From: Petrachloros mirabilis ULC683
GTDB lineage: Bacteria > Cyanobacteriota > Cyanobacteriia > Thermosynechococcales > Thermosynechococcaceae
Direction: 5' to 3'
Assembly: GCF_009939295.1 (NCBI RefSeq)
Contig: NZ_WVIC01000033.1
Coordinates: 1-48,412 of the forward strand
Length of the DNA stretch: 48,412 nucleotides
Position numbers and translations under genes: made by a program. Below the pieces are notes generated by a model, which had not been told where the DNA came from, did not search any database, and was given only the letters and a program-made list of their open reading frames with translations. Positions 7,031 through 37,508 of this stretch are shown here, one piece after another (within the stretch, counting starts at the first letter, position 1; every line of letters begins with the position of its first letter).

Positions 7031-8155
7031 CTAGGTCAAACCGTAGCGCATTCCAGGCTGCTGCACGACTAATCCTAACAGCTCCAGTTGCAACAGTGCC
7101 CCCGACAACGTTCCTGGTGCCTGCTGGGTTTGGGCTGCTAACAGATCATAGGGCACCGCAGGCTGTCCCATAGACTGACACAAATCTCTGAGCAACCGAT
7201 ACACCTCGGCCAACTCCGCACTCAACCCTGCTGTCGGGTCAGCTTGGGAGCTAGCACCTGAAATAGGGGCAAGGGGCGGTAGGGCACCCAGCAACTCTAG
7301 CAGATGTCCCTCTCCCAAAATCAACTGTGCCCCACGACTGACCAACCCCAAGCATCCCATTGCTTTGGGATTATCTAAAGATCCGGGTAAAACATAGACA
7401 TCTCGGCTGTAGTCATTGGCCAAATAGGCCGTAATCAGTGCCCCTGACTGTTTGGGTGCTTCCAAGACCAATGTGGCTCGGCTCAGCCCCGCAATGATGC
7501 GATTGCGACGGGGGAAGTGGGCACGATTGGGCTGGGTTCCGGCAGGGTATTCGCTCAACACCAAACCTGTCTCGACGATGCGTTGGTACAGTCCTTGGTT
7601 GCGCGGCGGATAAATTTGATCCACCCCGGTTCCTAGCACTGCAATCGTGCGTCCTCCAGCTTCTAAGCAGCTTTGGTGAGCCTGAGTATCAATGCCCTCA
7701 GCCATGCCTGACACCACCACAAACCCTTTTTGGGTCAGGGTTTTGGCGAGCCTTCGGGTCCACCGCTTGCCGTAATCTGTGGGGTCACGAGTGCCCACCA
7801 TGGCCACCGTTGGGATGCTCCCTTGATTTTCTTCCGGTCGTACCTGTCCCCGGTAATACAACACTGGCGGTGGATCGGCAATTTCAAGTAAGAGGCGCGG
7901 ATAATCAGGATCGGCTGGCGTCCAAAAGTGGGGGTTTTGGCGCAGGTGATGGGTGTAGAGTTGTTCTGGATGAAGCTGCGATCGCTGCCGTAGAATTGAT
8001 GCCTGAGTTTGGCCACCAATCCCGTTTACACCAGAGAGATCCGCTTCGGCCCAGGCCGCTGCCAAGCTACCAAACTCTGCCTGAAGCCGCTGCAACAGGA
8101 CTGGCCCCACCCCAGCAATCTGTGACCAGACTAACCAATAAATGCGTTCATCCAC
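7031..8155 (-). CDS. dprA: DNA-processing protein DprA
   Basis: DprA binds incoming single-stranded DNA and loads RecA during natural transformation. The 374-residue product has the full family plan: an N-terminal helical region with an HhH-like part (SGVNGIGGQTQ), the Rossmann-like core with MVGTRDPTDYGKRW and VVSGMAEGIDTQAH, then FPRRNRIIAGLS, and a C-terminal winged-helix region. The start is GTG at 8155, only 3 bases after the stop of the upstream toxin gene, so it is probably translated from the same message. It is followed closely by the Yip1-like gene. Confidence 0.93.
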   Translation of the reverse strand: MDERIYWLVWSQIAGVGPVLLQRLQAEFGSLAAAWAEADLSGVNGIGGQTQASILRQRSQLHPEQLYTHHLRQNPHFWTPADPDYPRLLLEIADPPPVLYYRGQVRPEENQGSIPTVAMVGTRDPTDYGKRWTRRLAKTLTQKGFVVVSGMAEGIDTQAHQSCLEAGGRTIAVLGTGVDQIYPPRNQGLYQRIVETGLVLSEYPAGTQPNRAHFPRRNRIIAGLSRATLVLEAPKQSGALITAYLANDYSRDVYVLPGSLDNPKAMGCLGLVSRGAQLILGEGHLLELLGALPPLAPISGASSQADPTAGLSAELAEVYRLLRDLCQSMGQPAVPYDLLAAQTQQAPGTLSGALLQLELLGLVVQQPGMRYGLT

Positions 8156-25918: not shown

Positions 25919-25937
25919 AAAATGATAATCATTATTG
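25919..25937. promoter_or_regulatory. Zur/Fur-type operator 1
   Basis: AAAATGATAATCATTATTG contains TGATAATCATTATTG, 13 of 15 to the 7-1-7 Zur motif TGATAATNATTATCA. It lies between the broken znuA-like gene (-) and folE (+, 230 bp away), so it may once have served the former and might still serve the latter. Confidence 0.65.
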
Positions 25938-26166: not shown

Positions 26167-26817
26167 ATGACCTTACCGAACCCGACCCAACTGTCCAGCA
26201 CCGAAAGCCTTGAACTATCTTTGAAAGCCCCCGCTCAACCGCCAGTTTCTGAGGCAGAGATGATCCAGGCCGTTCGTACCCTACTGATTGGCCTCGGCGA
26301 AGATCCAGATCGCGAAGGATTGCTAGATACCCCCAAGCGGGTCGTGAAATCGCTGAAGTTTTTGACCTCTGGCTACCAACAATCCCTAGATGAGCTGCTG
26401 AATGGCGCGGTCTTTACCGAAAACGCAGATGAAATGGTTCTGGTGCGCGACATTGATTTGTTTAGCTCCTGTGAGCACCATATTTTACCGATTTTGGGTC
26501 GCGCTCATGTGGCTTACATTCCTAACGGCAGGGTGATTGGACTCTCTAAAATTGCCCGAATTTGCGAAATGTATGGTCGTCGCCTTCAGGTGCAGGAACG
26601 CTTAACAGCCCAAATCGCTGACGCTCTACAAGGGCTGTTGAAGCCTCAGGGAGTTGCCGTTGTGGTGGAAGCCACCCACATGTGTATGGTGATGCGCGGG
26701 GTGCAAAAGCCAGGTTCTTGGACGGCAACTAGTGCCATGCGCGGCGTGTTTGCCGATGATGCCCGTACTCGGCAGGAATTTATGAGCCTCATTCAGCACA
26801 GTCCTGCTTCGCGTTGA
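26167..26817 (+). CDS. folE: GTP cyclohydrolase I
   Basis: Makes dihydroneopterin triphosphate for folate and pterin synthesis. The 216-residue protein has the zinc ligands of the FolE1 class in SSCEHHILP (Cys102, His105) and HMCMVMRG (Cys173), so it is the zinc-using type, not the zinc-free FolE2. A COG0523 GTPase gene starts 14 bases after its stop; COG0523 proteins are proposed to deliver zinc, so the pair could supply metal to this FolE. It is probably one of two folE copies in the genome, which this window cannot show. Confidence 0.93.
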
Positions 26818-26830
26818 GCACAGATGACCC

Positions 26831-27817
26831 ATGTTCGAGCAACCTAAAACCCCTGAAGCCAAACTCCCCGTCACGATTATCACAGGCTTTTTAGGCAGCG
26901 GCAAAACCACGCTGCTCAATCATATTCTGACCCAGGCTGGCAATCGCCGTATTGCGGTCTTAGTGAACGAATTTGGGGATATTAACATCGACAGCCAGTT
27001 CCTCATCGCCCTGGATGAGAACATGATTGAACTCAACAACGGCTGCATCTGCTGCACCATCAACAACAACCTTGCAGAGGCCGTCTGGCGAATTTTGGCA
27101 CGGCGAGAGCAGGTGGACTATCTCGTGATTGAAACGACGGGAGTTGCTGACCCGCTGCCGATTATGCAGACCTTTCTGGCATCTGAACTATGGAGCTTTA
27201 CACGCCTGGATGCGGTACTGGCCGTTGTGGATGCCGAAGCCTTTACCCCAGAGCATTTTGAGAGCACCGCAGCCCTACGCCAAGTGGCCTACGCCGACAT
27301 CGTGTTGCTCAATAAAACGGATTTAGTCAGCGATTTACAGATTCGTACTTTGGAAACATACGTTCAAACTATTCGCCAGAATCCTCGTATTCTGCAGATC
27401 CAGTACGGAAAAGTTCCGCTCTCCCTTGTTTTGGATGTGGCTTTACAAAGTTCGGAAGCCAGTGAAAACAGTCCCAGTCATGCCCATGACCACTCTTATA
27501 CCCATTCCGACCATTTAGAGGCGGATGGGTTCATGGCGGTTTCCTTTGAGAGCGATCGCCCCTTCAAATTCAAGCAATTTCAGGAATTTCTAGACTATCA
27601 TCTGCCCGAGGGCGTATTTCGGGCAAAGGGGGTGCTTTGGCTTGCGGAAAGCCCTGATCGCCATCTGTTTCAGCTCAGCGGCAAGCGCTTTAGTTTGCAA
27701 GACGATCAATGGCGCAGTCAGCCCAAAAACCAAGCCGTTTGGATTGGCCGCAACTTAAACCCGACCCAACTTCGGCAACAGCTTTCCGATTGTTTGCAGG
27801 AGGTGCCCCATGAATGA
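26831..27817 (+). CDS. COG0523 G3E-family GTPase, putative zinc chaperone
   Basis: A 328-residue P-loop GTPase. Walker A is GFLGSGKTT (about residues 19-27), the metal motif CXCC is Cys72-Ile-Cys74-Cys75, and LLNKTDLV is the guanine-specificity motif. A His-rich loop (SHAHDHSYTHSDH) lies before the C-terminal COG0523 domain. Such GTPases act as metal insertases; in Zur loci they serve zinc enzymes. It is probably co-transcribed with folE. A short frame overlapping its stop was not accepted as a gene. Confidence 0.92.
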   Translation: MFEQPKTPEAKLPVTIITGFLGSGKTTLLNHILTQAGNRRIAVLVNEFGDINIDSQFLIALDENMIELNNGCICCTINNNLAEAVWRILARREQVDYLVIETTGVADPLPIMQTFLASELWSFTRLDAVLAVVDAEAFTPEHFESTAALRQVAYADIVLLNKTDLVSDLQIRTLETYVQTIRQNPRILQIQYGKVPLSLVLDVALQSSEASENSPSHAHDHSYTHSDHLEADGFMAVSFESDRPFKFKQFQEFLDYHLPEGVFRAKGVLWLAESPDRHLFQLSGKRFSLQDDQWRSQPKNQAVWIGRNLNPTQLRQQLSDCLQEVPHE

Positions 27818-27875
27818 CGATGCCCAATGGCTCGAACCGCTTCAATTTAATGGGAACCGCATTAATCCTCTTCGC

Positions 27876-29090
27876 CTAAGCAACCGCTCTACTCAACGCT
27901 ACAGTCGGCTTAGTTAAGGCTTCTACAATGCGATCGCTGGCAATTTTTGCACCTCGCAAATTCCGTGAAAATGGTCCGACCTGAAGGGCTGCCAACCCGC
28001 CCATCACAAATAGCTCACAACCGAGCCAGCGCAGATGAGGGTCTAACACAGGTAGTCCATTCACAATCTCTGTGGAGAAATATCTCTGCACTTCTTGCAG
28101 TAAAGGATGACGGGATGCATCTAGTCCACGGCCTGTGGCATACCAAATGCGATCGCACTCAAAATCATCTCCATCCGTGCATTGAACCTGCCAGCGTCCC
28201 GATTGCCAGCGCACCCATTCAATTTGGCAATTTTCTGCCAGTTCAACGGTTTTATCCCGCCGTGCTCGGCGCAACTGCACCATCATCTCTGGCGTGAGCG
28301 AACCGCCATTGCGTGCGGTTTGAATCATCTGCCAACGCTGATGCCAGTCCGGTTCCGCACAGAAGCCCTTAAGGTACTTGGGCCCCATCCACCCTGGATC
28401 AGCATCGAATAGCTTCTCTTGAAATTGTCGCCGCGCCATGAGTTTGACCTTGGCTTCCCGACGCACCGCACCTATCGCAAGATGCCCACTCGTCAGACCG
28501 CCACCCACAATCAAAATTTGCTCGCCCCGAAGCTGGAGCTGACTCAGGTTAACCTGAACCGAATGACAAAGCCGCTCCGCAGGATAGTCTTCCTGAAGCG
28601 ATCGCACCCAGCCAGGCACATTGAGCGCACCATCCCCACCCGCCAGCACAACCCTTCGCACCAATAGACAACGCCCATCCTTCAGCCAGAGTCGAAATCG
28701 ATGACGCTGTTGCTGAATCGGCTCAATCTGAACCACCTCAGCCGCCATTACGCGATCTTGTAGGCTCCACTGCTGAATCACGGTTTGACAAAAATCCTGA
28801 AAGAGCTGGCGACCAGGACGGTCATAGGGCGGAAATAATTCCTGGGGACGCGATTCAGCAAAGGTTCGCAGTGCCACAGGGTTGGGATCGGGATGATGAG
28901 CCGCAGGCGATCGCAAATAGGGAATATCCTGCGCCATAAATTGCTGCTGCCATCGCTGCATCCAGGTGCCGCTAGGGTCAAGCACCACAAACAGCGGCGA
29001 CTTCCGCTGTCCCTTTTGGAGCAGATGGGTGGTCAAGGTTAGCGCCTGTGGCCCTGCGCCAATAATGGCAATATCCGTTTGCAGTTCCAA
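27876..29090 (-). CDS. FAD/NAD(P)-binding oxidoreductase, lysine/ornithine N-monooxygenase-like
   Basis: A 404-residue flavoprotein. The FAD motif is DIAIIGAGPQALTL, a second dinucleotide motif is ILIVGGGLTSGHLAIGA, and IWYATGRGLDASRHP closes the fold. I chose TTG at 29090 with GGAGGG 4-5 bases upstream, because a longer frame reading MIMIIIIF is simply the translated operator. The substrate is unknown; co-location with a Zur-type operator suggests a role in metal limitation. Confidence 0.8.
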   Translation of the reverse strand: MELQTDIAIIGAGPQALTLTTHLLQKGQRKSPLFVVLDPSGTWMQRWQQQFMAQDIPYLRSPAAHHPDPNPVALRTFAESRPQELFPPYDRPGRQLFQDFCQTVIQQWSLQDRVMAAEVVQIEPIQQQRHRFRLWLKDGRCLLVRRVVLAGGDGALNVPGWVRSLQEDYPAERLCHSVQVNLSQLQLRGEQILIVGGGLTSGHLAIGAVRREAKVKLMARRQFQEKLFDADPGWMGPKYLKGFCAEPDWHQRWQMIQTARNGGSLTPEMMVQLRRARRDKTVELAENCQIEWVRWQSGRWQVQCTDGDDFECDRIWYATGRGLDASRHPLLQEVQRYFSTEIVNGLPVLDPHLRWLGCELFVMGGLAALQVGPFSRNLRGAKIASDRIVEALTKPTVALSRAVA

Positions 29091-29114
29091 AACGCCCTCC
29101 CTCAAGTTGTCAAA

Positions 29115-29139
29115 AATAATGATAATCATTATCATTATT
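29115..29139. promoter_or_regulatory. Zur/Fur-type operator 2
   Basis: This near-palindrome contains TGATAATCATTATCA, an exact match to the 7-1-7 Zur motif, and fits the 19-bp E. coli Fur box at 18 of 19. It lies between divergent genes: 24 bp upstream of the oxidoreductase start and 29 bp before the Crp-type regulator. It may control both. Confidence 0.82.
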
Positions 29140-29167
29140 TTATAGCGTTTAGCAACTCCCCAAAAGC

Positions 29168-29806
29168 ATGTCTCCTAACGCCCTCAATTTATTGGAGCCA
29201 ACTGCGGTTAAAGTTTTTGGCCGCGCCGACCAGATTCCTGGACAGCCCGGTGTTTTGTGGGAAATTCAACGGGGAATTGTCAGAACCCAAACCTGGACTG
29301 AAGCGGGTAAAGTGATTAGCCTGGGCTACTGGGGAATTGGCGAGGTTGTGGGCACACCCCTTGCAGCAATAGACCCCTATGAAATGTTCTGCATGACACC
29401 CGTCATGGTTCGCGGGTTAGACCAGCATCATGCAGCAGCGCTGCCGTTTCTGTATCAGCAGGTCAAAACCCAGCAGAAACTGGCATGGATTATGCGACAA
29501 GCCTCCGTCGCTGAGAAGCTTTGGAGTTTGCTGCTCTGGCTTTATGAAAAGTTTGGCTACACCGTTCAAGAGGGATGCCTGATCGATATTCGTCTGACCC
29601 ACCAGGATTTGGCAGATTTAGCCGACACGACTCGCGTCTCGGTAACGCGACTGCTGAATCAGTTTGAAGCCCAACGGCTGCTATGCCGACGAAATAAACA
29701 TTATGTTTTGCTAACGCTAGAGCCTGATTTGCTTAAGCTACGGTCTCTTGCTCCAGGCAAGGAGAGCACAATCCAAAAAATTCTAGGGTGTGATAGAAAA
29801 TCTTGA
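29168..29806 (+). CDS. Crp/Fnr-family transcription regulator
   Basis: A 212-residue regulator: an N-terminal beta-rich sensor-like half (IPGQPGVLWEIQRGIVRTQT) and a C-terminal winged helix with RLTHQDLADLADTTRVSVTR, the Crp recognition helix region. No Fe-S cysteine cluster is visible. It is divergent from the oxidoreductase across a Zur-type operator and overlaps the 3' end of zur by 74 bases. Confidence 0.85.
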   Translation: MSPNALNLLEPTAVKVFGRADQIPGQPGVLWEIQRGIVRTQTWTEAGKVISLGYWGIGEVVGTPLAAIDPYEMFCMTPVMVRGLDQHHAAALPFLYQQVKTQQKLAWIMRQASVAEKLWSLLLWLYEKFGYTVQEGCLIDIRLTHQDLADLADTTRVSVTRLLNQFEAQRLLCRRNKHYVLLTLEPDLLKLRSLAPGKESTIQKILGCDRKS

Positions 29807-30134
29807 ATCGAAGCGATAGCGCCTGGGGCAACACCTGCTCATCAATCGGGCAGTACGCCAAAGGAACCGAGATACCACACTTGACACAGGTGACATAGAG
29901 CTTTTCTTCAGACACCAGACTGTAGACCGCTTCTCCATTGGACAACAATCTAGCCTGCACCGCACCTTGAAGCTGTAGATGTTTGAGCCCACGGTACACC
30001 GTCGCCAAACCCAGACGATGCTTTTGCTGTCGCAGCTCAGCATAGATCATCTGAGCCGATACTTCTGACTCAAGGGTTTTCAACAGATTAAAAATGGTGG
30101 CTTGATGGGGGGTCAAAGGGCTTAAGGCAGACAT
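29733..30134 (-). CDS. zur: Fur-family zinc regulator Zur
   Basis: A 133-residue Fur-family protein with winged helix (SAQMIYAELRQQKHRLGLAT, VYRGLKHL) and two structural CXXC pairs (Cys83/Cys86, Cys123/Cys126). The HHDH-type motif of iron-sensing Fur is replaced by VSEEKLYVTCVKCG, favouring Zur. Genomic context (COG0523, folE, zinc-free HemB, operators) supports Zur rather than Fur. It is convergent and overlapping with the Crp-type gene; its upstream region is occupied by the IsrB element. Confidence 0.85.
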   Translation of the reverse strand: MSALSPLTPHQATIFNLLKTLESEVSAQMIYAELRQQKHRLGLATVYRGLKHLQLQGAVQARLLSNGEAVYSLVSEEKLYVTCVKCGISVPLAYCPIDEQVLPQALSLRFKIFYHTLEFFGLCSPCLEQETVA

Positions 30135-30260
30135 GGCTGTTCATTCACTGAATCAATTTTAAGCTTGATAGAGCTGCTTCAAGAGAAGAATAGGGGATGT
30201 CGGGAATCCCCGACACTTCAGTGCGGGGAGGAACGACGGCTCGTGGGGCTTTAGCCCCCG

Positions 30261-31352
30261 TCATGCTATGCATAGGTTTGTAGCCCTCCGAATTAGATTG
30301 ATTTGATTCAGCCCAAACTGACCTATACGATGCCAGTTCCAGTCATAAACAGAAACTTTTTTGGATTTATTTGTATTGGTATAGCCGCCAACCCAACCCG
30401 TCAGAATTTGCCCCTTGGTCTTGACCTGAACTTTATCGCCAGACCGATACAAAAAAGGAGTAACCGTTCCGCCTTTGCGCTTGCGTTCCCCGCCCTTGAG
30501 CGGATTCTCGAAGTGCAATTGACGGCGGTATAGGTTAGGTCTTGAAACGACCTTGAATGGTGCTGGGGTTATTTCTACTGCACCTAGCCAGCTATGTCCA
30601 TGCTCTTTGCCGTGGCAGAAAGATTCATAGCTTACAAACTGAGTAGCAGCCAATGCAATTCCGTCCACCGCATGAGTTTCAGGAGATTGAATGGACTTAT
30701 CCGCTTTGTTTTTGATTAGCCCCAAGTGATTTCGAGTATTAGAGGTTTCCCATCCAAACTTGGTTACGACGGGTGCCAAGTCACGCAACCAACCTAACAT
30801 CACTTTTTGCCCCACCATGACAGGACTGAAAGACTTAGACCCTCGTGCTTCGATGTACTCATAGACAATCGTTGCAATGGGGAATAATCTCAGCAGTTCT
30901 TTGACAACCCGTAACTCTAATTCACGGTTAGCTCGGATAGATGGAGGGAGCTTTGTTTGTCTACGGTTGCTAAATCGTTTCTGACGATGTGCCCTGAGAC
31001 TAAATGCAAGGTTGCGATTGATTCGTCTACCACGTCTTACTCGTCTTAAAATCCGTCTGCCTGTCATTTTCTTGGTGACAGACTTGAACGGAAGAAGAAG
31101 ATGTGCCAAGAACAAAGTGACCTTTGCGGACTGAACGGCAATCCCTGAGTAGAGTTTGCCAGGGTCTACGCCAATTACAATTTTCTGGGTTTTGCTACCA
31201 GATGGTTTAGCGACAAGCTGAATATAGTAGACCCCAAGGTCTGACCACTTGGCTATAGCTATCCCATCTCGAACCATGCGACGGGCACGACTGGGTTTGG
31301 TTGGCATGGCAGGGGTGCCATCTGGGTTTTGTACTGGGACTCTAGGTTGCAA
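30261..31352 (-). CDS. isrB: IsrB: IscB-family RuvC protein without HNH
   Basis: A 363-residue RNA-guided nuclease relative. The N-terminal PLMP-like part is NPDGTPAMPTKPSRARRMV; RuvC-I is IGVDPGKLYSG (Asp63); an Arg-rich bridge helix is RRILRRVRRGRRINRN; RuvC-II is IVYEYIEA (Glu165/Glu168); RuvC-III is ETHAVDGIALA (His227, Asp230). Only about 60 residues separate RuvC-II and RuvC-III, with no HNH pattern, so it fits IsrB, reported to nick DNA with an omega RNA. The start is TTG at 31352, directly after an in-frame stop. The catalytic residues look intact. Confidence 0.82.
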   Translation of the reverse strand: MQPRVPVQNPDGTPAMPTKPSRARRMVRDGIAIAKWSDLGVYYIQLVAKPSGSKTQKIVIGVDPGKLYSGIAVQSAKVTLFLAHLLLPFKSVTKKMTGRRILRRVRRGRRINRNLAFSLRAHRQKRFSNRRQTKLPPSIRANRELELRVVKELLRLFPIATIVYEYIEARGSKSFSPVMVGQKVMLGWLRDLAPVVTKFGWETSNTRNHLGLIKNKADKSIQSPETHAVDGIALAATQFVSYESFCHGKEHGHSWLGAVEITPAPFKVVSRPNLYRRQLHFENPLKGGERKRKGGTVTPFLYRSGDKVQVKTKGQILTGWVGGYTNTNKSKKVSVYDWNWHRIGQFGLNQINLIRRATNLCIA

Positions 31353-31557
31353 TTAAGATAATTCTCTTTCGAGTTGTATGTTCCTTCGCCCACCACATGA
31401 AGCATGTCCCTTCCGCAGGCACTCTCAGCTAGAGAGTTTGGAGATAGACCAGATTAGGAAAAAGTCTGGCAGTCCGTAACACCATGTGGCTCATGGGCTA
31501 GTCACGCTTACGCTTGAGCCTAGCTACTCAAGCCCCGTCTCTTTAGAGCGGGGTCAG
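31353..31557 (-). ncRNA. Putative omega RNA of the IsrB element
   Basis: The stretch upstream of isrB has no ORF but dense pairing: CCCCG/CGGGG (31533-31553), CTTGAG/CTCAAG (31513-31532), CCAGA/TCTGG (31449-31469), ACTCTC/GAGAGT (31421-31437) and a long-range CCACATG/CATGTGG (31393-31399 with 31483-31489). Position, size and multi-stem layout match the scaffold RNA expected 5' of iscB/isrB genes. The guide would be encoded just outside the element, at about 31558-31577. Confidence 0.65.
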
Positions 31558-31570
31558 TGACAATGATTAA

Positions 31571-31589
31571 GATAATGATTATCATTTTA
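31571..31589. promoter_or_regulatory. Zur/Fur-type operator 3, upstream of hemB
   Basis: AGATAATGATTATCA (from 31570) is 14 of 15 to the 7-1-7 Zur motif. It lies about 46 bp before the hemB start and about 14 bp from the left-end hairpin region of the IsrB element. It should repress hemB when zinc is sufficient. Confidence 0.75.
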
Positions 31590-31634
31590 ACTTATGCGCT
31601 TTGCCTTTGCCAACCTTACTGAGAGATGTGTTGC

Positions 31635-32612
31635 ATGACGTTACGACCCCGCCGTCTTCGGAAATCTGAATCGATCCGTCGCCTGGTGCGCGAAATCCAG
31701 CTTACGGTTGATGATTTGATTTACCCGCTCTTTGTGATGGAGGGAGAACAGCAAAAGGTAGAAGTGCCTTCAATGCCGGGCTGCTACCGTTACTCCCTAG
31801 ATGAGTTGCTCAAGGAAATTGAAGATGCCCAGGCCGTGGGGATTGGGGCGATCGCACTTTTCCCGCTGATTCCAGACCATCAAAAAGATGCCCAAGCCAC
31901 AGAGAGCCTGAATCCAGAAGGACTGATTCCTAAAACTGTAAAGGCCATTAAGCAAGCCTTTCCAGACCTTGTAGTTATCACCGATGTTGCGCTAGACCCT
32001 TACAGCAGCTTAGGTCATGATGGGTTAGTGGATGAGCAAGGCCGCATTCTTAATGACCCTACGGTAGAAATATTGGCAAAAATGGCGCTGATTCAGGCCG
32101 AAGCAGGTGCGGATTGGGTTGCCCCATCTGACATGATGGATGGTCGCGTGGGTGCCATTCGCAAGGTGTTGGATGCTTCAGGCCATTGGAAGGTAAGTAT
32201 TCTGGCTTATTCAGCCAAATATGCTTCGGCTTACTATGGCCCTTTTCGAGATGCGCTAGAGTCTGCACCTCGGTTTGGTGACAAAAAAACCTATCAAATG
32301 GACTCAGCCAATGCCCTTGAAGCACTAAAGGAAGTGAACCTGGATATTGCCGAAGGCGCAGATATTGTCATGGTCAAACCTGCCTTGGCATACATGGATA
32401 TCATTCACCGCATCAGGACTTCAACCCATTTGCCTGTAGCGGCCTACAATGTGAGCGGGGAGTACGCCATGATCAAGGCTGCTGCCCAAAAGGGCTGGAT
32501 TGACGAAAAAGCCATCATGCTGGAAACGCTCACCAGTCTAAAACGGGCTGGGGCAAACCTAATTTTGACCTATTTTGCCAAGGAGGCCGCACTGCTGCTG
32601 CGGAACTCATAG
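31635..32612 (+). CDS. hemB: Delta-aminolevulinic acid dehydratase, zinc-independent type
   Basis: Condenses two 5-aminolevulinate molecules to porphobilinogen for heme and chlorophyll. From ATG at 31635 the product has 325 residues. The metal site reads DVALDPYSSLGHDG (residues 117-130): the three zinc cysteines of the DXCXC...GHCG form are Ala119, Asp121 and Asp129, as in magnesium-type enzymes. Catalytic lysines are in YSAKYASAYY and MVKPALAY. Under a Zur-type operator, this is a zinc-sparing replacement for a zinc enzyme. Confidence 0.95.
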   Translation: MTLRPRRLRKSESIRRLVREIQLTVDDLIYPLFVMEGEQQKVEVPSMPGCYRYSLDELLKEIEDAQAVGIGAIALFPLIPDHQKDAQATESLNPEGLIPKTVKAIKQAFPDLVVITDVALDPYSSLGHDGLVDEQGRILNDPTVEILAKMALIQAEAGADWVAPSDMMDGRVGAIRKVLDASGHWKVSILAYSAKYASAYYGPFRDALESAPRFGDKKTYQMDSANALEALKEVNLDIAEGADIVMVKPALAYMDIIHRIRTSTHLPVAAYNVSGEYAMIKAAAQKGWIDEKAIMLETLTSLKRAGANLILTYFAKEAALLLRNS

Positions 32613-32842
32613 GCGACTTTTTCTATAGGGATCTCAACAAAATCTGGAGAATATTCTGCTCTGATGTATGAAGTTCTTAGTAGAAGTTCTTTGTACAAGT
32701 CTCCGTTGTGGCGATCGCCCATCGTAGTATGACGTACGAACCCTGATGAATTTAGGAATGGCGGTAGAGATCTTGTACAGCGGGTGTCCGTGCCTAGTTT
32801 GGCAGTTGATCGGGGTCATGCCTTGCGATCGCAGTTGGGCAT

Positions 32843-32969
32843 GTTCTAGAGCGGGGTCAACTGGTCAAAATCGTCACCCATGGTCAAAATCGTCACCCAT
32901 ACTGAATTGCTAGCCCAGGCGAGACGGTATGCTCAGCTTTACGAGATGCAATTTGCGGATTCCCAGCAG
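32843..32969 (+). pseudogene. ABC-exporter C-terminal remnant, copy A
   Basis: The + strand encodes [13 protein letters not shown], then TELLAQARRYAQLYEMQFAD after removing a 19-bp tandem duplication (32863-32881 and 32882-32900). This is the last ~35 residues of an ABC exporter ATPase. A related remnant lies at 38785. In the 32613-33191 gap I see nothing else I can support. Confidence 0.7.
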
Positions 32970-33191
32970 AACAAATTCCGCCACTCTTGCCCTCTGTCCA
33001 AGACCCTCTGGTGGGGGCAGGTGTCAATCTGCGACTGACGGCAACCCAACCAACCATCGCTCAATTTTCTCTGGTCTAATCATCGCTATGACATTGGCCT
33101 CGATTCCAGGGGCAATTCTCTGACCACCTGCTGAATGGGGTCGTATCTGGGCAAACCCCGAATATTCTGGAAGCAACCCTGAAACAATTGA

Positions 33192-34085
33192 TCAATCCTG
33201 CAAAGTTTGCAGAAACTGGCAGGCCGTCTGGATTGCTTGCAGGCTGCCAGGATTGATCAAACCATAGTAGTCCGCCTGATGCACCTGACCCGATTGCACC
33301 GCCGACAGTTGTTGCCAGAAGGGCTCAGTCCTGAGGGCATCCAGCATCCCTGGCGCTGCTTCAACCGTAATCAGTATCTCTGGATTGGCTTCTAGCACCT
33401 TTTCGGCGGAGAGAGTTACATAGCCGCTAAAAGGACCGCTGCCTTGCAGGTCAGCGACCACATTTTGGAACTGAAAGCGGGTCAGTAAATCGCCAGCCCA
33501 ACTGTCTTTATTCGGTGCCAGTAGGGGCTGTTGACTGGTCAATACCAGAATGGAGGGCTGAGATCCAAAGTCAGCAGGGGAGCAAGCTTGATACTGTGCC
33601 TGGATGGCCGTAGGTTCTGCCCCCAATTGGGTTGCCAGCGCAAGGGTAAGCTGTTCTAAATTCTGGAGCGATCCCATTTCTGTCCGCAGGGTGGAAATGT
33701 TGAGCTGCTCTAGCTTTTGCAACACCTGATCGTGGAAGCCAACCGCCCCAATCACCAGATCAGGTTCTAGAGCCACAATGGTTTCTAGATTAGGGGGGGT
33801 ACGGCCTTCGCTGACCACCGACATATCCTGAAAGCGAGGGTCATCTTGCAGCAAGCGACTGCCAGGAATGCCCACCAGTTTATCCGCATCTAGACGTTGA
33901 ACCAGATCCGCAGATAGGGAGGTGAGCGCCACCACTCGCTCTACGGAGGGCGGAGGGGATGGGGAGACAGGCGCAGAGGCCTCCGGGGGGGCAGCACAGG
34001 CAAACAGCAAAAGGCTGATACTCCCAATGGCCACCCCTTGCCGCCAGTGGTAGTGAGTAGATCCCCAGATTGTCCACACAGACAT
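33192..34085 (-). CDS. Periplasmic metal/heme-type binding lipoprotein (FecB/BtuF fold)
   Basis: From ATG at 34085 it has 297 residues. A lipobox LLLFAC places the lipid-anchored Cys at residue 30, followed by a Pro-rich linker. The rest follows the helical-backbone binding protein plan: VVALTSLSADLVQRLDADKL, TIVALEPDLVIGAV and ALRTEPFWQQLSAVQSGQVH. It is the last gene of the receptor cluster at 33.2-38.7 kb. The ligand is inferred as heme or iron chelate from the receptor type. Confidence 0.85.
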   Translation of the reverse strand: MSVWTIWGSTHYHWRQGVAIGSISLLLFACAAPPEASAPVSPSPPPSVERVVALTSLSADLVQRLDADKLVGIPGSRLLQDDPRFQDMSVVSEGRTPPNLETIVALEPDLVIGAVGFHDQVLQKLEQLNISTLRTEMGSLQNLEQLTLALATQLGAEPTAIQAQYQACSPADFGSQPSILVLTSQQPLLAPNKDSWAGDLLTRFQFQNVVADLQGSGPFSGYVTLSAEKVLEANPEILITVEAAPGMLDALRTEPFWQQLSAVQSGQVHQADYYGLINPGSLQAIQTACQFLQTLQD

Positions 34086-34115
34086 GGCTAGAATCTCCAC
34101 AAAACAACAGATCAA

Positions 34116-34973
34116 TTAGGGCTGGACAAACAGAGAAGGGGAATCGGCGTTAGAGAGGGCACCCCTAGTCTCAAAATTATCAACCGGAAACGAGGACTCA
34201 ACGGGAGCGACAGGGTAGAGTTGTAAGCCCACCGGGGTCTGGACGCGGGCTGCCTGGAGACCAAAGACAGCGGCGAGATTCTCGTCATTCAGAACCGTCT
34301 CTGGCTCACCCACAGCCCAGAGTTGACCTGTGCGTAGCATTGCCAGACGGTCACTGTAGCGAATGGCCAAATTTAGATCATGGAGAACAGTCAAGATTGT
34401 GAGCCCCTGCTGTTGATTGAGGGACTTTAGCAGCGTCAATAATTCCAGTTGGTGACGTAAATCCAGGTAGGTGGTGGGCTCATCCAATAAGAGCACCTGG
34501 GGGGTCTGAGCCAGCGCTAGAGCCAGGAAAGCCCGCTGCCGCTCTCCTCCTGACAAATGAGCGACCGGGCGATCGCGGTCAGCTTGCAGTTGGGTCAACG
34601 TCAGAGCCTGCTCCACCTGTTGGCGATCTTCGGCAGACAGTTGCCACTGCCACCAGGACTGATAGGGGGTTCGTCCTAAACTCACCAGATCCCAAACCGC
34701 TAGCCCAATAGGAACCTGAGTCTGTTGGGGTAAGAGCGCCATCTGGCGAGCCACAACTTGAGGAGGCTGCTGGTGAATGGCTTTACCATCCAGCAGGACT
34801 CGTCCGGCCTGGAGGGGTAAAATCCGGCTGATCAGCTTCAGCAGCGTGGATTTACCCGATCCATTGGCACCCACCAAACTCAACCACTCCCCTGGTTCTA
34901 AAGTCAGATGAATGCCAGCGACGGTTAAACCGGAGTCATACCCCCCGCTCAGGGCTTCTAGATTGAGGGACAT
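34116..34973 (-). CDS. ABC transporter ATP-binding protein (FecE/FhuC type)
   Basis: A 285-residue ATPase from ATG at 34973. Walker A is GANGSGKSTLLKL, signature LSGGERQRAFLALAL, Walker B VLLLDEPTTYLD, switch TVLHDLNLAIRYSD. It belongs to the siderophore/heme/cobalamin ATPase class. It is the only such ATPase in the window although two FecCD permeases are present, so it may serve both. A longer upstream frame to 35045 lacks family similarity. Confidence 0.92.
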   Translation of the reverse strand: MSLNLEALSGGYDSGLTVAGIHLTLEPGEWLSLVGANGSGKSTLLKLISRILPLQAGRVLLDGKAIHQQPPQVVARQMALLPQQTQVPIGLAVWDLVSLGRTPYQSWWQWQLSAEDRQQVEQALTLTQLQADRDRPVAHLSGGERQRAFLALALAQTPQVLLLDEPTTYLDLRHQLELLTLLKSLNQQQGLTILTVLHDLNLAIRYSDRLAMLRTGQLWAVGEPETVLNDENLAAVFGLQAARVQTPVGLQLYPVAPVESSFPVDNFETRGALSNADSPSLFVQP

Positions 34974-35045
34974 TGGTACTCCTTCATGACAGCAAACCAC
35001 GACTGAGGATTCTGCCATCCCTGGACAGCGAACAGTACGACCCAC

Positions 35046-37508
35046 CTAAAACTCCCACAAAACGCTGACCCCAAAATTAATCCCCGGTTGGGTAATCCGG
35101 GCTCGACGTTGGGCAAAGGTGGGATCATCGACACCGGTAATTTGGGGATTGAGGCGACGGGCATCAGCATAGCGAACATACTCAGTATTGAAGAGATTAA
35201 AGATTCCGGCTTGGAGGGAAAGCCCAGAGGTGGGCCGATAATACCCCAACAAATCCACCAGAGCGTAGGGGCTGGGAATGAAGTCTCCAGGATCGCTGTC
35301 GGTTCTGGCTTTGCCAACAATAGTGGTGGCCAGTTGCACGCCCCATCGATCCTGGGGTGCCTGATAGCCCAGTCCCAACACGGCCTCAATGGGGTTGATG
35401 GTTTCTAGGGGGCGGTCATTTTCATCATCGGTGCCGCGCACCCAGGCTAGCCCCCCAAAGAGGCGGAATCCGTCCGGGCCGGGGCTAAAGCGATATTCGC
35501 CCTGGGCTTCTAGTCCGTAGATACGCACCCGTCCCAGGTTCTGCGATTGAAACAGTTGGATACAGCCGGGGGTAAAGGGCGGGAAACAGCCCGGCGGATC
35601 GGTGCCCACCCTCGATCCTTCAGCGGCTCCAAAAATAAAGTTGTTGTAGAGGCTATAAAACCCGGTGAGGCTAACTCTGGCCTGGGGGAAAGCGCCGCGC
35701 ACCCCGACTTCAAAGGTGTCACTGGTTTCTGGCTTCAGGTTGGGAGCCGAGAGGGTGCGATACCCCCCCAGAGGGTTGGAGAATCCGCTGTTGAGTTCCA
35801 GGTAGGTTGGGGCACGGAAGCCCCGAGCGTAACGTCCCACTACAGCCACCTCGGGGGTGGCCTGATAGACTAGACCCAGGCTAGGAGATAGGGCTGAATC
35901 TTGTAGATTAGAGGCTTCGGCTCCTGGATTGCGCTGGTAGATGTCGTCCAGCTTGGTGGTGAGGCTGTAGTAATCGAACCGCAGCCCTGGAATCAGGGTG
36001 AACTGTCCAATGGCCATTTCATCTTGCAGGTAAACGCCAATGCGCAGGGTGTCGGAGTCGGGGAAGTCTTTGACTGGGAAGTTATCTGGGCCAATGGTGG
36101 TCGTTACTGCGCCAGTGAGCAGGTTGGTGGAGCGGCCATCCCGCACTCGCCGGTTAAAGGTATTGGAAATATCAACCCCATAGGTGAGGCGATGAGTGAC
36201 CGGTCCGGTGCTAAAGTCGCTACGAAATTGGGCTTCACCGCCGTAGATATTTTCCACGAAGCTGTTTTCGAGAACACGAGATCGGGGGGTGGGGGGTGGC
36301 GTGAAGGGCGGGGGGACAAAGGGGTTAAAGATGTCGTCCCGTAGCCGATCTTCGAGAAATTCTGCCCCTTGGTAGTAGCCCTGAATCCGAGCAAATTGGA
36401 TGATACCCCTACGGTCGGGGGGGTCGTATTCATAGGCGAGGCTGATACGCCCCCGACGATTGGCGGTTTCGGTGCGATCGCTCAAGACCTGAGACCCTGG
36501 CCCAGCAAATACCAGGTTGAGGTTGTCTGTGGCAGTGGTGAATTTACCGGAGTCGCGGTAGTATTCTCCGGTTAGGGTCAGGGTGCTGGCATCGTTGAAG
36601 CGATAGACCAGCTTGCCCAGCAGGTTATCGGTGTTTCCAGAAAAGGGATCGGCAAAGCGGCTGTCGGCATTGATTTGGCGGCGACCCCGATTGCGACGAG
36701 TATACTGCACCAGCCCTTCTAGATTGTCCAGGGCGCGAAAGGCAAAGGTGGCGGTTCCGGTGACGCCAGTGTTGACGCTGCGGTACTGCACGCCCACCTC
36801 ACCCGCGTAGTTTCGGTCAGTGCGCTCTAGAAAGTCGGCGGGGACGGGGGTGAAAAAGCTGACTACCCCGCCCAGGGCATCGCTGCCATAGAGGGCAGAA
36901 GCGGAGCCACGCAAGATTTCAATGCGCTGGAAGGCTCCAATATCGAGGTAGTTGCGACCCAGGCGGGAGGCACCAAACTCAAAGTAGGTGGGCTGCCGAA
37001 TGCCATCGACTTGAATGAGAACCCGGTTGCGTTCTAGGCCACGAATGTTGATATCGGTGAGACCGTAGGTGACATCCTCGTTGACGGTGACCCCTGGGGT
37101 ATAGCGCACCAGATCGCGCAGGTCTTGCCCCAGGGCTCGCTTTAATTCCTCAGATGTGGTGATGGTGATGTTGGCGGGCGATTGCAGGGTGGCTCTGGGG
37201 GTGCGGGTGCCGGTGACGCTAATTTCAACTTCTTCCCAGTCAATGTCTGATTCCAGAATCAGAGGGTCTGAAGACACTTCTGGGTCTGACTCGGGAGCGT
37301 CTTCATTCGGTTCTAAATCCACACTGGAATCTTGAGCCAGCAGGGCTTCAGCCTGGGTAATCGGAGTAGGGATCTGGGTGATGTCAGGAATAGAATCTGT
37401 CATCACCTCCCCGTCGGTAGCTAGAGCCGTGGCAGTAAGGGCTGGGCTTTGGCTCAGCAAAAGGGTGGCAATCATCCCTGATAGCAGTTCTAGATAAGAA
37501 TCTTTCAC
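35046..37508 (-). CDS. TonB-dependent receptor, hemoglobin/transferrin type
   Basis: Outer-membrane receptor of 820 residues with a signal peptide at the start, then a Glu/Asp-rich linker, a TonB-box-like EVEISVTGTR near residue 93, and the plug (LVRYTPGVTVNEDVTYGLTD; IQVDGIRQPTYFEFGASRLG; LRGSASALYGSDALGGVV). The GIRQ and IRGLERNRVLIQVDG style fits heme/hemoglobin-type receptors. The barrel ends GVSVLWEF with a terminal Phe, as needed for assembly. Flanked by its ATPase and permease. Confidence 0.9.
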   Translation of the reverse strand: MKDSYLELLSGMIATLLLSQSPALTATALATDGEVMTDSIPDITQIPTPITQAEALLAQDSSVDLEPNEDAPESDPEVSSDPLILESDIDWEEVEISVTGTRTPRATLQSPANITITTSEELKRALGQDLRDLVRYTPGVTVNEDVTYGLTDINIRGLERNRVLIQVDGIRQPTYFEFGASRLGRNYLDIGAFQRIEILRGSASALYGSDALGGVVSFFTPVPADFLERTDRNYAGEVGVQYRSVNTGVTGTATFAFRALDNLEGLVQYTRRNRGRRQINADSRFADPFSGNTDNLLGKLVYRFNDASTLTLTGEYYRDSGKFTTATDNLNLVFAGPGSQVLSDRTETANRRGRISLAYEYDPPDRRGIIQFARIQGYYQGAEFLEDRLRDDIFNPFVPPPFTPPPTPRSRVLENSFVENIYGGEAQFRSDFSTGPVTHRLTYGVDISNTFNRRVRDGRSTNLLTGAVTTTIGPDNFPVKDFPDSDTLRIGVYLQDEMAIGQFTLIPGLRFDYYSLTTKLDDIYQRNPGAEASNLQDSALSPSLGLVYQATPEVAVVGRYARGFRAPTYLELNSGFSNPLGGYRTLSAPNLKPETSDTFEVGVRGAFPQARVSLTGFYSLYNNFIFGAAEGSRVGTDPPGCFPPFTPGCIQLFQSQNLGRVRIYGLEAQGEYRFSPGPDGFRLFGGLAWVRGTDDENDRPLETINPIEAVLGLGYQAPQDRWGVQLATTIVGKARTDSDPGDFIPSPYALVDLLGYYRPTSGLSLQAGIFNLFNTEYVRYADARRLNPQITGVDDPTFAQRRARITQPGINFGVSVLWEF

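What the first reader, a model, noticed from the sequence alone, without database searches (positions are those of the whole stretch)
30190..31589. IsrB element with omega RNA placed against the Zur operator of hemB
Seen: a 363-residue IscB-family protein with all three RuvC motifs and no HNH, a stem-rich 200-base non-coding region 5' of it, and stem-loop ends. The left end falls about 14 bp from the operator TGATAAT-type palindrome at 31571-31589. Established: in IscB/IsrB systems the guide is encoded just outside the left end. Inference: the guide (about 31558-31577) would overlap the operator, so the RNP would be programmed with operator-adjacent sequence. This could bias cleavage or binding to similar operators, reminiscent of TnpB-derived regulators, or be coincidence. 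The insertion also separates zur from its ancestral promoter region.
Basis: partly seen in the sequence, partly recalled or inferred. Interest (0 to 1): 0.78.

Follow-up and report, generated by a model that had tools for sequence, protein, structure and literature searches.

The report
RNA-guided IsrB element beside zinc operator
An ordinary mobile element carrying a small RNA-guided DNA-nicking enzyme (IsrB) has landed between a zinc-regulator gene and its operator, so its guide happens to copy part of that operator; the sequence shows no sign that it is aimed at the cell's other operators.

Summary
Two related genomes hold the empty site, which places the element at 30183-31561 (1379 bp, about 1 nt ambiguous). 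Its first base is also the first base of the omega-RNA scaffold, so the 20-nt guide is 31562-31581 (minus strand), TAATCATTATCTTAATCATT. In the empty site this is followed by TTGA, the target-adjacent motif published for DtIsrB. The Zur-type operator lies at 31570-31584, 8 bp from the left end (not 14), and covers guide nucleotides 1-12, the half away from the TAM. The protein is a full-length IsrB with an intact RuvC tetrad. The omega RNA shows strong covariation among 22 relatives. The regulatory reading fails: the guide has no TAM-bearing match in the genome at up to 3 mismatches. The six other near-perfect operators reach at most 16/20 without a TAM. Guides of 41 related elements show no operator bias. 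Best explanation: a standard OMEGA homing element programmed against its own empty zur-hemB site. Untested consequence: the conserved zur promoter now reads into guide, omega RNA, isrB and zur, which could put IsrB under zinc control. Side finding: cyanobacterial IsrB elements often land exactly on host start codons (ATGA).

The parts
30183..31561 (-). Complete IsrB element (1379 bp); left end 31561, right end 30183; about 1 nt ambiguity
   Evidence: Empty orthologous zur-hemB sites in G003 and G013
31562..31581 (-). Encoded 20-nt guide TAATCATTATCTTAATCATT, just outside the left end
   Evidence: Scaffold position 1 = 31561 in HEARO and in model R1; guide length from DtIsrB (PMC9581776)
30179..30182 (-). 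TTGA target-adjacent motif, in the right flank; abuts the guide sequence in the empty site
   Evidence: NTGA/TTGA TAM of DtIsrB in PMC9581776
31356..31561 (-). Omega RNA scaffold (HEARO-type)
   Evidence: HEARO hit; 36 of 45 consensus pairs with compensatory change in 22 sequences; R1 model hit 170 bits (window is in the training set)
30261..31352 (-). isrB, 363 aa, RuvC tetrad D63/E165/H227/D230, no HNH, PLMP domain at N-terminus
   Evidence: AlphaFold model best matches 8dmb, Foldseek E 1.9e-29
30208..30228 (-). Right-end hairpin CCCCGCACTGAAGTGTCGGGG, shared in kind by relatives' right ends
   Evidence: Read from sequence; comparison of right ends
31570..31584 (+). Zur-type operator AGATAATGATTATCA between zur and hemB; overlaps guide nt 1-12
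   Evidence: conserved in G003 and G013 empty sites
31584..31613 (-). Promoter-like TTGGCA-N18-TAAAAT directed at guide, omega RNA, isrB and zur
   Evidence: number of hits equals chance; hexamers and 18-nt spacing conserved in G003 and G013 by reading the sequences
29733..30134 (-). zur-like Fur-family gene, intact, now 48 bp downstream of the element's right end
   Evidence: Pfam FUR; 85% and 78% identical to orthologues at the empty sites
31626..32612 (+). hemB (porphobilinogen synthase), divergent neighbour
   Evidence: Pfam ALAD, NCBIfam PRK09283

Best explanation
A standard IsrB OMEGA element (no transposase of its own) inserted once, in this lineage, at a TTGA target in the leader between the shared zur/hemB operator region and the zur start codon, in the same direction as zur. 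Because the guide is whatever lies outside the left end, it copied 20 nt that include 12 nt of the operator. The RNP is programmed against the empty zur-hemB site (guide sequence followed by TTGA). It should not cut the occupied site, where the guide sequence is followed by GTCA. By analogy with TnpB homing, nicking an empty allele would favour copying the element back. Overlap with the operator is a by-product of where it landed. Shown: element borders, guide, TAM, structured RNA, intact catalytic residues, absence of other close targets. Inferred: nicking activity, homing, and transcription of the guide from the zur promoter.
For: Empty sites give borders to about one nucleotide. The empty site reads guide + TTGA, matching the published DtIsrB NTGA/TTGA TAM (PMC9581776). 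Multi-copy relatives end at the same structures: left end [GT]TCA, right end followed by ATGA. IsrB by sequence and fold with invariant RuvC residues. Covarying omega RNA. No second target at up to 3 mismatches; other operators lack TAM-bearing matches. Single IsrB and omega RNA in the genome. 38 of 47 IsrB elements are co-directional with the next downstream ORF (sign test p 2.5e-5). Homing by TnpB is described in PMC11870625.
Against: No expression or activity data. The G003 empty site lacks one T, so the exact TAM register there is shifted by one; G013 has TTTA, so the ancestral TTGA is inferred. HEARO score is below Rfam's gathering cut-off. Only TnpA fragments exist in this genome, so present mobility is doubtful. 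The chance of a random insertion hitting a near-perfect Zur operator is low a priori, though the coincidence was noticed after the fact.
Confidence: 0.88

Rival explanations
1. The element has become a regulator: the RNP uses its operator-like guide to bind or nick several Zur operators and modulate zinc genes.
For: 12 of 20 guide nt are operator sequence; the guide matches other operators up to 16/20 when no TAM is required.
Against: None of those matches has an NTGA TAM; best TAM-bearing match near any operator is 13/20 with at most 4 contiguous TAM-proximal matches. No genome-wide TAM-bearing match at up to 3 mismatches. RuvC residues intact. Two related genomes have the empty site and guides of other elements are unrelated to operators.
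Confidence: 0.03
2. The element has captured the zur promoter: guide, omega RNA and isrB are transcribed from the Zur-repressed zur promoter and zur is expressed by read-through, so IsrB activity follows zinc status. (This is an add-on to the best explanation, not an exclusive rival.)
For: Conserved TTGGCA-N18-TAAAAT facing the element in the window and both empty-site relatives; operator abuts the -10; isrB and zur co-directional, with the right end 48 bp from the zur start; zur intact.
Against: Promoter hits in the region are no more than chance; the start site would fall about 4 nt inside a 20-nt guide; a weak terminator-like hairpin lies at the right end; no RNA data.
Confidence: 0.3
3. 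The element is a dead relic: isrB and omega RNA are not expressed or not active.
For: Single copy, no intact TnpA found; TTG start codon.
Against: Full-length ORF, all catalytic residues, paired omega RNA helices and a sharp left border kept.
Confidence: 0.2

Closest known systems
DtIsrB (Desulfovirgula thermocuniculi IsrB, PDB 8dmb) and its omega RNA
   Same: Size, PLMP-RuvC-TI layout, RuvC tetrad, no HNH, upstream omega RNA, guide at the left end, NTGA/TTGA TAM
   Different: About 35% identity; shorter scaffold (about 206 vs 262 nt); activity not tested
Cyanobacterial IsrB orthologues (CwIsrB and DsIsrB are mentioned in PMC9581776)
   Same: Family of element and HEARO-type RNA; the related elements recovered here are 47-65% identical in protein
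   Different: Not compared directly with CwIsrB or DsIsrB; landing sites differ from element to element
Rfam HEARO RNA (RF02033)
   Same: Same position before the ORF, same first nucleotides GUCA and closing stem, matched over 1-211
   Different: Scores 32.9 bits, below the gathering score of 83
TldR (TnpB-derived RNA-guided repressors)
   Same: Only the idea that a transposon-derived RNP could act on promoter DNA
   Different: Different protein family; nuclease residues here intact; no TAM-bearing guide match in a host promoter

Membership tests
IsrB (OMEGA nickase) | PLMP + RuvC I-III with catalytic D/E/H/D | tested here: met
   D63, E165, H227, D230 invariant; best structure and sequence match 8dmb
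IsrB (OMEGA nickase) | No HNH domain between RuvC II and III | tested here: met
   62 residues between E165 and H227; no HNH in Pfam
IsrB (OMEGA nickase) | Structured omega RNA upstream, guide at its 5' end outside the left end | tested here: met
   border from empty sites
IsrB (OMEGA nickase) | NTGA TAM 3' of target in the empty site | tested here: met
   TTGA at 30182-30179; [AT]TGA at right ends of 47 relatives, of which 15 have ends set by copy comparison
IsrB (OMEGA nickase) | RNA-guided nicking of the non-target strand | not testable with these tools
   Needs RNP assay
HEARO RNA (Rfam RF02033) | Score above gathering threshold | tested here: not met
   32.9 vs 83 bits; related by position and structure only
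IS200/IS605-type transposon | Y1 transposase in cis or trans | tested here: not met
   None in the element; two fragments in the genome
TldR-like RNA-guided regulator | Inactivated nuclease | tested here: not met
   Catalytic residues intact
TldR-like RNA-guided regulator | Guide matching TAM-bearing promoter targets in the host | tested here: not met

The most novel reading that the evidence does not exclude
Zinc-responsive OMEGA element: the Zur-controlled zur promoter transcribes guide, omega RNA, isrB and zur as one unit, so zinc starvation would raise RNP levels and the zur autoregulatory loop now passes through a mobile element.
Probability: 0.3. Interest if true: 0.55.

Novelty: new member of a known kind. 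Interest (0 to 1): 0.36.

Why it matters
It gives a nearly nucleotide-exact natural example that the guide of an IsrB element is set by its landing site, with the empty site reading target + TTGA as biochemistry predicts. It shows that operator sequence in a guide need not mean regulation, because TAM and TAM-proximal matches are missing elsewhere. The wider pattern (elements co-directional with the next gene, often landing on ATG starts) suggests that host promoters supply the guide transcript, which is directly testable.

Tried and rejected
Cross-targeting of other Zur operators: rejected. Standalone omega RNAs in trans in the own genome: none with model R1; two 17-bit HEARO hits not supported by R1. 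General preference of IsrB elements for palindromes or operators: none in 42 guides. Empty-site check of one start-codon landing (L083) in its genus found no clear orthologue. Early alignments A1 (one row taken from the wrong strand) and A3 (a stray one-residue row) were discarded. The original HEARO, IscB/IsrB and homing papers were not held.

Full report
What is there. The window lies in a 4.12-Mb genome (G000, contig C51) whose IsrB and zinc-locus relatives are cyanobacterial (the organism itself is unnamed). ORF 30261-31352(-) is a 363-aa protein whose best solved relative is DtIsrB, 8dmb (E 1.9e-48 over residues 4-359); its AlphaFold model (pLDDT 76.5, pTM 0.69) also finds 8dmb first. D63, E165, H227 and D230 are invariant across 17 proteins and only 62 residues separate E165 from H227, so there is no HNH.

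The RNA. Rfam HEARO matches 31374-31561(-) over its full model with 32.9 bits, E 1.3e-4, but below the curated 83 bits. An alignment of 22 sequences gives 45 consensus pairs, 36 with compensatory changes. A model built from it finds a single place in the whole genome, this one (the window is part of the training set, so only the absence of other hits is informative). Thermodynamic folding alone would not have been convincing (z -1.9).

Borders. Two same-family genomes have zur and hemB adjacent without the element. Joining the window flanks reproduces these sites with at most one base difference in length. The element is 30183-31561. The left border coincides with the first base of the RNA scaffold, as it does in relatives where copies within one genome define the ends.

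TAM. In the empty configuration the guide sequence is followed by TTGA. DtIsrB prefers NTGA, and TTGA at 60 C (PMC9581776). Right ends of 48 elements including this one are followed by ATGA (38) or TTGA (10). For 15 elements the border was set by comparing copies; for the rest I picked the NTGA after the right-end hairpin, which is partly circular, and one element left out of the count (L093) seems to have ATGC. The occupied site reads guide + GTCA and so should be immune.

Does the guide aim at operators? The genome has seven near-perfect operators (at most 1 mismatch), one of them this one. The operator half of the guide is TAM-distal; the TAM-proximal 8 nt are outside the operator. Around the other operators the best match is 16/20 with no TAM, and the best TAM-bearing match is 13/20. 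Genome-wide, guide + NTGA with up to 3 mismatches occurs only at the locus itself, without the TAM. Guides of 41 related elements show no palindrome excess. DtIsrB nicks 8-11 nt from the TAM, so a nick in an empty site would fall at about 31569-31573, at the operator edge. The operator would be touched only in alleles that lack the element.

Effect on the neighbours. In the ancestral arrangement the operator lies about 57 bp upstream of the zur start (48 bp to the insertion point plus 8); here the element lies between. A TTGGCA-N18-TAAAAT promoter-like motif faces zur (31613-31584), and both hexamers and their spacing are kept in the two relatives (sequences; the motif count alone equals chance). 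If real, transcription would start near 31577, inside the encoded guide, and continue through omega RNA and isrB to zur. zur is intact. I rate this promoter capture at about 0.3; it needs RNA data. The element's GTGAC also replaces the bases at the -35 position of a possible hemB promoter, effect unknown.

Wider pattern. Elements are co-directional with the next ORF in 38 of 47 cases (p 2.5e-5). Of 38 ATGA elements, 16 have an ORF of at least 150 aa starting exactly at that ATG, against 12% of ATGA sites in the flanks (p 3.5e-6; not corrected for shared ancestry). Pfam domains begin at the first residues of several of these ORFs (epimerase, response regulator, HAD phosphatase, DAHP synthase), so these ATGs are very probably true starts. 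The element's right end often carries a purine-rich SD-like stretch before the ATG (23 of 38 with a lenient pattern, no control). I recall, unverified, that the original HEARO description noted integration next to ATGA/GTGA. The window's element uses TTGA and is not on a start codon.

Verdict. New member of a known kind.

Noticed in passing
L070, L083, L088, L099, L106, L115, L117 and others, right ends: IsrB elements in cyanobacteria often land exactly on the start codon of a co-directional host gene (TAM ATGA = ATG+A): 16 of 38 open a frame of at least 150 aa vs 12% expected. Right ends often carry an SD-like stretch before the ATG.
   Followed up: partly
L085:1-1240, L088:1-1316 (genome G189): Several IsrB copies of one genome have a group II intron (RF00029 match plus reverse transcriptase with a C-terminal HNH-like motif) ending just before the isrB start, between the omega RNA position and the ORF.
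   Followed up: partly
window 26167-37508: A zinc/metal cluster: folE, a COG0523 (CobW-like) gene, FAD enzyme, Crp-family gene, zur, hemB, ABC transporter parts and a TonB-type receptor; perfect operators at 29120 and 46617 and a 2-mismatch one at 25923.
   Followed up: partly
G000:C65:6000-7060 (L111) and G000:C39:42602-43101: The genome has two further hemB-like matches; the C65 one has a perfect Zur-type operator just outside it (7046-7060), suggesting zinc-regulated hemB paralogues.
   Followed up: no
L075 (G195) and L092 (G050): IsrB element at the same start codon (ORF MNTAPAFLSIPDYL) in two genomes of one genus; in G195 the isrB match is split in two frames, suggesting decay in place.
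   Followed up: no
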